The notes under the pieces are model-generated. The model saw only the letters and a list, made by a program, of their open reading frames with translations, ran no database searches and was not told where the DNA came from. This document shows, piece by piece, positions 53,706 through 57,379 of a stretch of DNA of 64,000 bases (positions are counted from its first letter, which is position 1; every line of letters begins with the position of its first letter). Origin of the DNA: Moniliophthora roreri (lineage: Eukaryota; Basidiomycota; Agaricomycetes; Agaricales; Marasmiaceae); the NCBI GenBank assembly GCA_001466705.2, contig LATX02000200.1, positions 930,001-994,000 on the forward strand, in the 5' to 3' direction. Both the position numbers and the translations under genes were made by a program.

Positions 53706-56700
53706 TTACTTTGCGGCTAAGATCGCAAAGATCCCGAGCACGGCACCATCAGACCCTTCGGAGCCCTCCCCCAACAAATGAAGCCCAGAATCTTGAGCTG
53801 CCATCCTTCGGCCCAGTTCCATTCCACGGCCATCCCAAATGCAACGCATGCCATTTGAGCGTATTACCTGTGCCAGTTTTCCTGTCTCAAGCTGTCGAAT
53901 TTCTATAATATCGTTACTGAAAAGCAAAATGTATGGCCTGTGAAGGGCCACGCGCTCAGCGGTGTTCTCCCATTCAATTATAGCAGCAGTTGGCCGTGGG
54001 TTGTAAGACTTGTCGACGTAAAGGCCAAAGTCTGTCGAGTTGAGTGCTCCAGTTTGTGACATGACATCGAGAGGGACACACCTTTATAGCATAGTAAAAA
54101 CTCGTCCGCTGCAGAACTGAATATCCCCAGTGACTGGCACGACTTACGACGATCAGCCAATGGCGCCAACCAGATACTGTTCGGCTTGACTTGAGGTACG
54201 GCAATGCTGGTGAAGCTGGCGGCGAGTCTCAGGACCTGAGTGTAAAACGTTTGCCGGAAACGCTTAACTTGTTGGGATTGACTATTCTGAAGCCATCATC
54301 ACAGAGTATGATAATGCTGTTGTCATGAAACATAAGGTTGAGTGTCCCGGGCGGTAGGAAGAAATCCCTCACTGGGGACTTTGCAGACCTACCCGCTCGA
54401 GCACTGACCTTGTATCGCTTGAACCATTCGGACTTCGTGATATGGAGAAATTTGTGGCCAAGGCTCGTGGATGCTTTGCCGATCTTCTCTGCCACAGGCT
54501 CGAGCACCCGGCAGATGTTATCCTGCTGGAGAAATGAAGACGACGATTCAGTATGAGAAGACTAAGAAGTCATCTGTTCTCGTACCCCTATCTTCGTCAT
54601 ATAGACAACAAGCGTGCGATAATGGAGCCGGCCAGCACTGAAGAAGTACACGTCTTTGTTACCGCTCAGCCGTTGAGGAAGCAGCAAAGTCTGTGCAGCA
54701 TATGATACTGCGGAAACCAAAGTTTCTACGTGGTACGCTAACAGGACCTGTCAATAGAGGTTACATCAACGGTCATACCTAAATTCTGCGAACTCATACT
54801 CTGTCAGCCAACACTAGGAGGACTGCAAATTGTTCGAGCACCAAGCATTGTGTGACCATCTTCAGACAAAGTACTTGGCGTATAGCTATTATTTTATTTA
54901 TAAAAAGTCAGACCACAGCATCATCTGCCACGAGGAATGAAAACTGACACCTAGGATCATCCACGAAGCCTATCCAAACCCCGTCCTCGCATCCAATAGC
55001 AATCAAAACCCGACCGTTATCAGAAGCTAATGCATATTTTGTCAGCGTCACAAATCCTGAAAGCGGACAATACGGACCAAAAGTTACTGAGCAAGTGACG
55101 TGACTTGGACGTGCTAGCTGAAGCCCTGCTACTGTCGGAATCATGGGCTTTATGGCAAATACATCATCCCTGGTCTGAGGTATGGAGAGAGCCTCTTCAA
55201 ACTTCTGTTGCCATTCCGCCCTGATCTCTGCTGACTCAGCGTAGAGTGTGTAGGACCTGTGGATCTGTCCTCCACGATGAAGGTTGAAAGGAAATAGAAC
55301 GACTCCATGCTCGATTGGAGGTAATCCAAAATCCCCTAGGCTGAGCATATCGAGGGGTGTCGGCTAGAACATATGTCAATAGAAATACGAAAATAACGGG
55401 TAAAGCATACTACGTACTTTGCAAACGGCACGGTACCTCGCGAGCCCGCCGCTCTCGTTCACTTCGGTCATTAGAACTGGGAGACATAGTCAGCACACCG
55501 CATGTATCAAGAAACGGGGAGGAATACAAACAGTAGTTATCAAATAAGAAGACAAAAAAGTCACTGAGACTACTTGCAGATTGACATTTTAGATTCCCCG
55601 AATGAATCAGACGGCGCTTATCGTTGAAAGGGTCTAAGTCGTCCTATATAAATATGAGTTGAGCCTGCTCACGGACCGGCGGAAACTATTAGACTTACGA
55701 TAAAGCAAATAGGCTGCTCTGTCTGACAAATGAGGCTGGCATACCTCCTAAGCTCGGTTTTCTGCTGAGTCAGAACAAGGCTAGCTCGGGTATCCTGATG
55801 TATAGATTCGCTATCCTCCGAAACCAAGGGTATCACGAAGTCACCTGGATCTTGGTCGCTGACATCACAGAAGTCGTTGGAGGACAGCGTACGCTTCTCT
55901 AAGCCAGAAAGGAAGTTTACAACGTCCTCCGACAGTGGTGGATGTTTGACGTTGTTCCAGATCGCAAGCGACATCTCTTCCCAGTCAGGAGCAGCGTGTA
56001 CAGTGCCAGGGGGTACGATGTTGATTAGGTCCTGCAATAATTTTTCTGCAGTCGGGCGTCTTTGCGGGTCTTCGCTCCAGCATGATTGCATGAGAGACCA
56101 GACAATGTCCTCTATATCACCATGCCTCGCTGGACGCGATCCCTGCGATACGTGGTAGACTACTGCTGCGTCATTGTGGAGGTGATGAAAGGGTAGCAAC
56201 CCTGTGAATGTCTGATGGCAGTGTACAAAATCAATACCGCGTAAAGCCCGATGTCATTGAGATAAGACAATTACCTCGTAACATACACAGCCATACGCAT
56301 AAATATCGCTTTCAAGAGAGGTATTCATTCCTCGATGAACTTCTGGCGCGAGCCATCGTACTGTCCCTGTAGTATGAGTGCTCGAGGAAGTGATCTTAAA
56401 CACCTGAGAATCCGCAACGCGAGATAAGCCAAAGTCGGCAAGACAGGCTCTTCGGGATGGCGTAATGAGAATGTTGACCTGTGCAGAACGGTAAACATCG
56501 TCGTGACATCAAGGCATATGATTGACGCACGCCTTTCAGATCACCATGAATGATTTTCAAGCTATGAAGGTATGAAAGACCGTTTGCAACGTCATACATC
56601 TGATTCCAAAACTTTAATGAGGGGTCTCTTTCTGTTCGAATGGCTGCGGCTTACTATGAGATAACGGTCTATAGATTCGCATGAGCGATCCTTCAAAAAG

Positions 56701-57379
56701 TCGACGAGATTGCCGTTATCCATCCAGGGAGAAACCAAGCATAGTCGTTCCCGATTGTCGTCCAAGTAATAGAGGCCTAGGCATGGTAGAATATTCGGGT
56801 GTTTCAGTTGTCGCCAGACGATAACCTCTCTTAGATATTCCTAAACGCAGATGTTAGACCTTGCGGTCACAAGAAAGTTAAACAGCGACAAACCTTCAAC
56901 AGTTGCTGAACATCCGCCATGATGTACATTTTGACAACTTTCAAACAAACTACTTGACTTCCTAGTGCACCTTTCCATATGTCCCCAAACCCTCCACCGG
57001 CCACTGGGTATCTTCCGATCACGCTGACGTTGTGAATCGACAGGCACCTGGGATGAAGGAGCTGCTTTCGAGACAGGCGCAGCATAGTGCTGCAGATTGA
57101 AGTTCGAAGATGAGGAGGGGTACCAGGAAAATCGATAAGCTGTTATATACTGTTCAGTTAAAGGGGATGAACGTCGATATTGGCACTCACAAGCTGAAGG
57201 AGGTCCAGTAAGGACTGTGCAAGGTTTCCTTTCTGCTTCAATAGTTCACGGTAAGCCCGCTCGTCCTCAAATACGACCTCAATGCGCCTGAGCTGTTTCT
57301 CAAGGCACATGATATCTCGCGCCATTGAAGACCTCCCGTCTGTTTGAAGTTTTGAGATTGCTCGCCAGAATTGGGTCAT
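53706..57379 (-). CDS. Chimeric TKL protein kinase - PH - CNH protein (kinase fused to a RhoGEF C-terminus)
   Basis: Fifteen exons (57379-57191, 57139-56894, 56840-56655, 56599-56531, 56478-56275, 56211-55699, 55643-55532, 55476-55418, 55363-55078, 55026-54949, 54885-54800, 54747-54586, 54525-54269, 54215-54082, 54031-53706) give 968 aa with no frame break. Kinase domain (about 98-365): glycine loop GRYPVAGGGFGDIWKG, VVCLKVVK lysine, LKIIHGDLKGVNILI, CLADFGLSRV, GTVRWLAPEV and SCWSEDPQRRPTAEKLL. After a linker ending TEQPICFI comes PH (about 470-585: RRLIHSGNLKCQ) and CNH (about 600-930: AIGCEDGVWIGFVDD, NGMRCIWDGRGM). The DH and DEP domains of the parent are absent. A kinase coupled to a CNH scaffold could act in Rho/cell-wall signalling; that role is inference. 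The Met at 57379 is the least certain point. Confidence 0.85.

What the first reader, a model, noticed from the sequence alone, without database searches (positions are those of the whole stretch)
53706..57379. A TKL kinase fused in frame to the PH-CNH half of a RhoGEF
The minus-strand gene reads through 15 exons (2907 nt, divisible by 3) as kinase, PH and CNH, with catalytic Lys, HGDLKG loop, DFG and APE all present. The fused part copies the RhoGEF at 19.6-25.7 kb: exons of 59, 78, 86 and 162 nt are the same length in both, with introns in the same phase. This implies a genomic duplication joined behind a kinase, not retroposition. CNH domains do occur with Ste20-type kinases in animals (established), but a TKL kinase joined to a Rom2-derived PH-CNH is not one I know. 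It could connect kinase signalling to Rho1 or membrane sites of the parent GEF.
Basis: partly seen in the sequence, partly recalled or inferred. Interest (0 to 1): 0.88.

Follow-up and report, generated by a model that had tools for sequence, protein, structure and literature searches.

The report
Kinase fused to a stripped RhoGEF
A cacao-pathogen gene really does join a protein kinase to the docking half of a cell-polarity regulator whose catalytic domains were deleted, and related mushroom kinases appear to have captured this and other partner domains several times.

Summary
The gene (57379-53706, minus, 15 exons, 2907 nt, 968 aa) matches 968/968 a protein annotated in another Moniliophthora roreri assembly and encodes kinase, PH and CNH. 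A paralog 28 kb away (C100:1015360-1020455) reads as kinase-DH-DH-PH-CNH. Exon 6 of the finding joins the start of paralog exon 6 to the last DH2 helix of paralog exon 11: an in-frame deletion of about 1.57 kb removed the GEF catalytic part. It is not unique: 12 of 199 proteins held, from seven species, match both kinase and PH-CNH, and 4 of the 12 show no DH. AU tests reject one origin with the C77 fusion of the same genome; two of five tests did not reject. Sister M. roreri kinases 57-66% identical in the kinase part carry Atg11, WD40 or unassigned tails. Best reading: a probably active kinase steered by a GEF-dead PH-CNH module to Rho1 or hyphal-tip sites. The fusion is near certain; the mechanism is inferred. 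No expression data or structure prediction was obtained.

The parts
53706..57379 (-). Finding gene, 15 exons: 57379-57191, 57139-56894, 56840-56655, 56599-56531, 56478-56275, 56211-55699, 55643-55532, 55476-55418, 55363-55078, 55026-54949, 54885-54800, 54747-54586, 54525-54269, 54215-54082, 54031-53706
   Evidence: 968/968 identical to annotated P0001; 2907 nt
56026..57001 (-). Protein kinase domain (residues 110-360; Lys in VVCLKVV, HGDLKGVN, DFG, APE)
   Evidence: Pfam PF07714 E 2.7e-49; coordinates and motifs
55699..56211 (-). Chimeric exon 6: kinase C-lobe, kinase tail, then last DH2 helix and pre-PH segment in one exon
   Evidence: Aligned to paralog exon 6 (C100:1016453-1016871) and paralog exon 11 (C100:1018220-1018486)
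55834..55882 (-). Zone holding the deletion breakpoint (DH1, DH2 and five paralog introns, about 1.57 kb, missing here)
   Evidence: blastn block ends at 55883; DH2-tail homology resumes at 55833
55699..55833 (-). Remnant of DH2 C-terminal helix (IPLVSEDSESIHQD...) and pre-PH linker
   Evidence: Score against the paralog DH2 end reached by 10 of 20000 shuffles; against the whole paralog by 28 of 2000
55193..55619 (-). PH domain (residues 478-583), divergent
   Evidence: PH_5 30.2 bits (cut-off 30, residues 481-535 only), SOS1_NGEF_PH 26 bits (below its cut-off 27.7); 27 of 52 GEF-invariant residues kept
53838..55012 (-). CNH domain (residues 627-925)
   Evidence: Pfam PF00780 E 1.9e-42; 106 of 157 GEF-invariant residues kept; PH-CNH half of my first model matches Rom2 CNH structure 5o51, E 8.6e-20
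19576..25664 (+). Resident Rom2-type RhoGEF (GEF1, P0007, DEP-DH-DH-PH-CNH, 21 exons; DEP hit below its cut-off)
   Evidence: 1669/1669 identical; Pfam
50720..52093 (-). CNH-only copy, 8 exons by alignment
   Evidence: 52% identical to P0007 residues 1280-1643; no PH or kinase found upstream, no DH on this strand of the window
38161..38697 (-). CNH C-terminal fragment
   Evidence: 54% identical to P0047 residues 1351-1494

Best explanation
The gene encodes a fungal TKL-type kinase whose C-terminal half is the PH-CNH part of a Rom2-type Rho1 exchange factor. History (read from the paralog): a kinase of an expanded family acquired a DH-DH-PH-CNH body; after duplication, one copy lost both DH domains by an in-frame DNA deletion with both ends inside exons, and kept the kinase, PH and CNH frames. 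Working model (inferred): the PH and CNH propeller dock the protein on membrane and Rho1 at growing hyphal tips, as the Rom2 CNH does in Aspergillus, while the kinase, which has its catalytic residues, phosphorylates targets there. Because the DH domains are gone it should not exchange nucleotide and may compete with the resident GEFs for the same docking sites.
For: Fusion and gene model. Deletion. Selection: finding against paralog, dN/dS 0.075 in the kinase, 0.21 in PH, 0.205 in CNH, an average over both copies. Kinase motifs complete. CNH keeps 106 of 157 residues that are invariant (93% or more) in 33 resident GEFs picked by me, PH 27 of 52, DH1 0 of 82, DH2 5 of 95. Other kinase-CNH gene models without a DH hit: P0153 (with PH_5), P0134 and P0146 (no PH hit in Pfam). 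The Aspergillus Rom2 CNH binds Rho1 with mid-micromolar Kd and, overexpressed alone, goes to hyphal tips (PMC8488606: abstract, sections 8 and 10 and passages seen).
Against: No transcript or protein evidence. Two modelled Rho1-contact residues of Rom2 CNH (His968, Lys987; chain numbering inferred by me) are not kept in the finding by the alignment; by my reading of P0007 they are not kept in resident GEF1 either, so the test is uninformative. PH is barely at the Pfam cut-off. dS is 1.0-2.0 in the domains and 3.4 in the linker, near saturation, and the finding's own branch is not isolated. The paralog model needs two GC donors, and the only annotated protein of it that I saw is its last 600 aa, marked partial (P0002), so a full-length paralog product is unproved. 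The link to the window's own GEF1 has moderate support (82/88).
Confidence: 0.6

Rival explanations
1. Integrated bait: the kinase family carries copies of conserved hub proteins as sensors, so that something attacking or binding the hub also touches the kinase, as proposed for plant kinase fusion proteins and NLR-integrated decoys. PH-CNH would then be a bait for interference with the Rho1 pathway rather than an address label.
For: Sister kinases carry unrelated tails: P0206 and P0211 are 73% identical in the kinase part with no tail hit at E 1e-3. Partner domains in the 120 listed hits include VHS, YTH, Rom2-type and Cdc24-type GEF parts, PX-PH-RhoGAP, GIT_SHD, ATG11, WD40, Kelch/SH3, USP7-type, PAH and NACHT. 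The captured PH-CNH has evolved far faster than the resident GEF1 (1.52 against 0.10 changes per column from their common fork; that fork has support 82/88).
Against: dN/dS about 0.2 in PH and CNH gives no sign of rapid adaptive change. I know of no immune or incompatibility phenotype for these kinases. Ordinary retargeting explains tail swaps as well.
Confidence: 0.15
2. Decaying by-product: local duplication and recombination of GEF and kinase genes produced a fusion with no selected role, on its way to loss.
For: CNH pieces lie around it: 50720-52093 and 38161-38697 in the window, C100:1022240-1023524 and C68:65613-66066. Long branches in the PH-CNH tree. PH is marginal.
Against: 15 exons intact; identical protein in a second assembly, though the two may be of one strain; complete kinase motifs; dN/dS well under 1 in each domain tested.
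Confidence: 0.15
3. Residual exchange regulator: the protein still acts with GEFs, for instance by pairing with a DH-bearing kinase-GEF paralog, so that kinase and exchange activity work together.
For: A DH-bearing paralog lies 28 kb away, and two more kinase-GEFs are in the genome, C77 (P0116) and C141 (P0122).
Against: The finding has no DH; no evidence of pairing; models without DH recur in other lineages.
Confidence: 0.1

Closest known systems
Kinase-(DH)-(PH)-CNH gene models of Marasmiaceae and other Agaricales (P0116, P0122, P0123, P0132, P0153, P0134, P0146, P0004; several named 'Rho guanine nucleotide exchange factor' by their source)
   Same: Related kinase with a Rom2-type C-terminal part; P0153, P0134 and P0146 also show no DH
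   Different: Kinase clade, join position and number of DH domains differ; in the finding DH was lost by an internal deletion
Rom2/Rgf-type fungal Rho1 GEF (DEP-DH-PH-CNH), solved CNH 5o51
   Same: PH-CNH homologous, with shared introns
   Different: No DEP, no DH, kinase in front; not expected to be a GEF
Animal citron kinase and MRCK (kinase-coiled coil-C1-PH-CNH; recalled)
   Same: N-terminal kinase with C-terminal PH-CNH tied to Rho-family GTPases
   Different: AGC kinase, long coiled coil and C1 domain; presumably independent origin. Recalled, not compared by a call
Animal MAP4K/GCK kinases (Ste20 kinase + CNH; recalled)
   Same: Kinase plus CNH
   Different: Ste20 kinase, no PH; recalled, not compared
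FslK, fungus-specific kinase lineage related to tyrosine kinases (PMC3937382, passages seen)
   Same: Agaricomycete expansion; the finding's HGDLKGVN lacks the TK AARN motif and GSRP has the P described for FslK
   Different: Only 16 of 241 FslK members were reported to have extra domains; the paper's sequences were not compared here
Plant tandem-kinase fusion protein Lr9 (PMC10260399, passages seen)
   Same: Kinase joined to other domains that the authors hypothesise are integrated decoys
   Different: Plant, with shown resistance function; nothing of the kind is shown here

Membership tests
Rom2-type Rho1 GEF | Catalytic DH domain | tested here: not met
   No RhoGEF Pfam hit at E 0.01; 0 of 82 DH1 and 5 of 95 DH2 invariant residues
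Rom2-type Rho1 GEF | PH domain beside CNH | tested here: met
   Marginal: PH_5 30.2 bits against cut-off 30, profile 1-57 of 135; 27 of 52 invariant residues
Rom2-type Rho1 GEF | C-terminal CNH propeller | tested here: met
   CNH E 1.9e-42; 5o51 is the one PDB sequence found at E 0.001 with the PH-CNH half; the fold itself was not predicted
Protein kinase, catalytically competent | Lys, HxDLKxxN, DFG and APE motifs | tested here: met
   activity itself not testable
TKL kinase | Nearest relatives classed as TKL | tested here: inconclusive
   PK_Tyr_Ser-Thr scores above Pkinase (168.2 and 148.5 bits); M. roreri hit P0261 carries the source name TKL/TKL-ccin; no tree with reference TKL kinases
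FslK | Lacks TK AARN motif; P in GxRP; sister clade to TKs | tested here: inconclusive
   HGDLKGVN and GSRP fit the description; phylogenetic place not tested
Citron kinase / MRCK | AGC kinase, coiled coil, C1, PH, CNH (recalled) | tested here: not met
   Pfam finds no C1 at E 0.01; AGC membership and coiled coil not scored
MAP4K (GCK) | Ste20-family kinase with CNH (recalled) | not tested
   No Ste20 profile or reference kinase was compared
Integrated-decoy kinase | Partner domain acts as bait for an attacker | not testable with these tools
   Only the variety of partner domains is seen

The most novel reading that the evidence does not exclude
Marasmiaceae run a system of swap-partner kinases: a fast-expanding kinase family repeatedly captures pieces of conserved polarity, trafficking and autophagy hubs (Rom2, Cdc24, RhoGAP, Spa2-like, Atg11, VHS, WD40), in M. 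roreri at or after one exon, and in some cases strips the captured enzyme of its activity (here the DH domains), leaving hub-derived baits or address labels on a kinase: a fungal counterpart of plant integrated-decoy kinase fusions.
Probability: 0.15. Interest if true: 0.9.

Novelty: new variant of a known kind. Interest (0 to 1): 0.62.

Why it matters
It lays out a path from exchange factor to kinase cargo module: capture of a RhoGEF by a kinase, then deletion of its catalytic domains with the docking half kept. Similar captures, with different joins, occur in other lineages. That gives natural replicates for asking what PH-CNH does without GEF activity, a question opened by the Rom2 CNH work. 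It also points to a large set of mushroom kinases with interchangeable partner domains. I saw no description of it in the listings of the ten searches made, which cover open-licence papers only and most of which I did not open.

Tried and rejected
Assembly or annotation join of two genes: rejected, since a second assembly gives an identical protein and exon 6 is chimeric within one exon. Retroposition: rejected by shared introns. Single origin of kinase-GEF fusions, five AU tests: rejected for finding+paralog with C77 on PH-CNH (p 0.0009), and on the kinase with C77/C141/Paramarasmius (2e-37) and with Stygiomarasmius P0153 (0.0003); not rejected on PH-CNH with P0153 (0.063) or with C141/Paramarasmius (0.060). 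All these groups were named after a first tree was seen. Modelled Rho1-contact residues: uninformative. Possible prediction merges, not relied on: P0121 (kinase C-terminal), P0129 (DEP kept), P0140 (part of a kinase only).

The frame after the C74 kinase looked to me like the start of a calcium pump, but Pfam gave no hit, so I do not claim it; the C102a piece gave none either, and the C75a repeat gave scattered hits I do not trust. A whole-window kinase scan was faulty (aligned rows read as sequences) and was repeated. Regex listings of kinase tails failed and were replaced. A first joining of paralog exons was one base out of frame and was redone. Structure prediction was never accepted, so no fold comparison was made. 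Selection of rows: one search left out kinase matches under 80 bits and P0140 as too short; one search used 41 of its 60 rows; one search used 52 proteins picked by hand (of the 159 matching PH-CNH, and the paralog); one search used 30 of its 53 rows; one search used 33 hand-picked GEFs and 11 fused proteins, without P0121 and P0140. Searches are capped: one search listed 120 of 252, 120 of 488, 120 of 946; genome searches score only the best candidates, so further fusions may be missed.

Full report
What is there. The window is C100:930001-994000 of a 59.4-Mb genome. Protein P0002, named Moniliophthora roreri and tied to a contig of 2,329,406 bases, maps 600/600 to C100, which has that length. 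The species is the cacao frosty-pod fungus. The finding's gene is as described: P0001, 968 aa, from M. roreri MCA 2997, aligns 968/968 in 15 exons. Pfam gives a kinase at 110-360, a marginal PH within 478-583 and CNH at 627-925. The GEF at 19576-25664 (P0007) has 21 exons, and the 59, 78, 86 and 162 nt exons agree in length and phase.

How the fusion arose. Among the 12 stretches aligned, three others match both kinase and PH-CNH: C77:631294-636780 (P0116, kinase-DH-DH-PH-CNH, 1471 of 1473 residues), C141:88713-93270 (P0122, one DH, 1216/1216) and C100:1015360-1020455. The last is the nearest paralog, 74% identical in the kinase part and 61% in the tail. Its joined exons read as 1359 aa without internal stop, kinase-DH-DH-PH-CNH, with two GC splice donors; the only annotated protein of it that I saw is its final 600 aa (P0002). 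DNA alignment shows one block from 57305-55883 to C100:1015365-1016784 and resumption downstream of the DH region. Exon 6 of the finding (513 nt) matches the start of paralog exon 6 and then the end of paralog exon 11, which encodes the last DH2 helix. The stretch IPLVSEDSESIHQD against IPLVLEVIKSIRED scores 34, reached by 10 of 20000 shuffles against that segment and 28 of 2000 against the whole paralog. Measured on the paralog the missing piece is about 1.57 kb with five introns. Since DH-DH-PH-CNH is the architecture of the resident GEFs P0007 and P0047, deletion is far likelier than insertion (inference).

Is it maintained? Between finding and paralog, dN/dS is 0.075 (kinase), 0.21 (PH) and 0.205 (CNH); dS is 1.0-2.0 in these domains and 3.4 in the linker, so values are rough and average both branches. 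Of residues invariant in 33 hand-picked resident GEFs the finding keeps 106 of 157 in CNH, 27 of 52 in PH, 0 of 82 in DH1 and 5 of 95 in DH2; the paralog keeps 46 of 82 in DH1 and 58 of 95 in DH2.

Not unique, and repeated. Of 199 proteins held, 12 match both parts: three from M. roreri (P0001, P0116, P0122), three from Marasmius crinis-equi (P0121, P0140, P0146), two from Stygiomarasmius scandens (P0129, P0153) and one each from Paramarasmius palmivorus (P0123), Dendrothele bispora (P0132), Marasmius tenuissimus (P0134) and Leucocoprinus birnbaumii (P0004): seven species. P0121, P0129 and P0140 may be prediction merges. Four of the 12 (P0001, P0134, P0146, P0153) show no DH. By my reading the joins lie at different places: before DH1 (paralog, P0116), between the DH domains (P0122, P0123, P0132), or near the start of PH (P0153, P0134, P0146). 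Well-supported branches force at least five changes of the fused state on the kinase tree and four on the PH-CNH tree. C77's PH-CNH is 79% identical to GEF2, P0047; its kinase part is 82% identical to C141's, while their tails are 34% identical. Three of five AU tests reject common origin with the finding's clade (p 0.0009, 2e-37, 0.0003) and two do not (0.063, 0.060); the groups were chosen after seeing a tree. Gene conversion of tails could mimic some of this.

The wider pattern. In one search (kinase half as query; only proteins of about 533-1694 aa could be candidates; 120 best of 946 listed) my hand count finds 54 of 120 with a Pfam domain that I do not count as kinase-like. M. roreri's P0206 (Atg11) and P0211 (WD40) map 100% to C102:391427-394184 and C117:224173-227626. 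Their kinase parts are 73% identical and their tails have no BLAST hit at 1e-3. In P0206, P0211 and P0208 the first five exons are near-constant (120, 252-255, 186, 69, 204 nt) and the sixth varies; the paralog has the same first five sizes, the finding 189, 246, 186, 69, 204. Other partners verified by Pfam: GIT_SHD (P0220) and PAH (P0263), both before the kinase; PX-PH-RhoGAP (P0251), PH_10-PB1 (P0255), NACHT (P0264) and YTH (P0229) after it. The other partner domains rest on precomputed Pfam labels. Foreign gene models are predictions and some may be merges.

Literature. Bartual et al. (PMC8488606; abstract, sections 8 and 10 and passages seen) report that the Aspergillus Rom2 CNH binds Rho1 and that the isolated CNH goes to hyphal tips. 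Kosti et al. (PMC2838846; passages seen; author name recalled) report many TKL kinases in Laccaria and name CNH among the accessory domains unique to the A. nidulans kinome, a precedent for kinase plus CNH in fungi. PMC3937382 (passages) defines FslK. PMC10260399 (passages) hypothesises integrated decoys in a wheat kinase fusion.

Mechanism. Shown: fusion, deletion relative to the paralog, intact motifs, constraint averaged over two copies. Inferred: kinase activity, docking through PH-CNH, no exchange activity, competition with resident GEFs. My confidence is about 0.9 in the evolutionary account and 0.5 in the docking mechanism.

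Noticed in passing
window 43966-44799 and 48669-49502, minus: Two similar genes with Pfam Pkinase_fungal (PF17667, E 2e-19 and 1.7e-18; I recall this as the FunK1 type) lie between the CNH pieces.
   Followed up: partly
window 50720-52093 and 38161-38697, minus; C100:1022240-1023524; C68:65613-66066: CNH pieces near the fusion genes and on another contig; none matched the kinase in the alignments made.
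   Followed up: partly
window 21797-23369, plus: The resident RhoGEF P0007, like P0047, has two RhoGEF (DH) stretches in Pfam.
   Followed up: no
P0124 (Paramarasmius palmivorus): After its first kinase the protein goes on into what looks like a second N-terminal segment and kinase of the same family, a tandem kinase.
   Followed up: no
P0264 (Marasmius sp. AFHP31): A kinase of this family joined to an NPHP3_N/NACHT region, a possible link to NLR-like proteins.
   Followed up: no
window 11708, 16072, 36810, 50527, 52055: Five single undetermined bases (N) in the window; none lies in the finding's gene.
   Followed up: no
P0003 (Tephrocybe rancida): Gene model with two CNH and two PH_5 stretches in one protein.
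   Followed up: no
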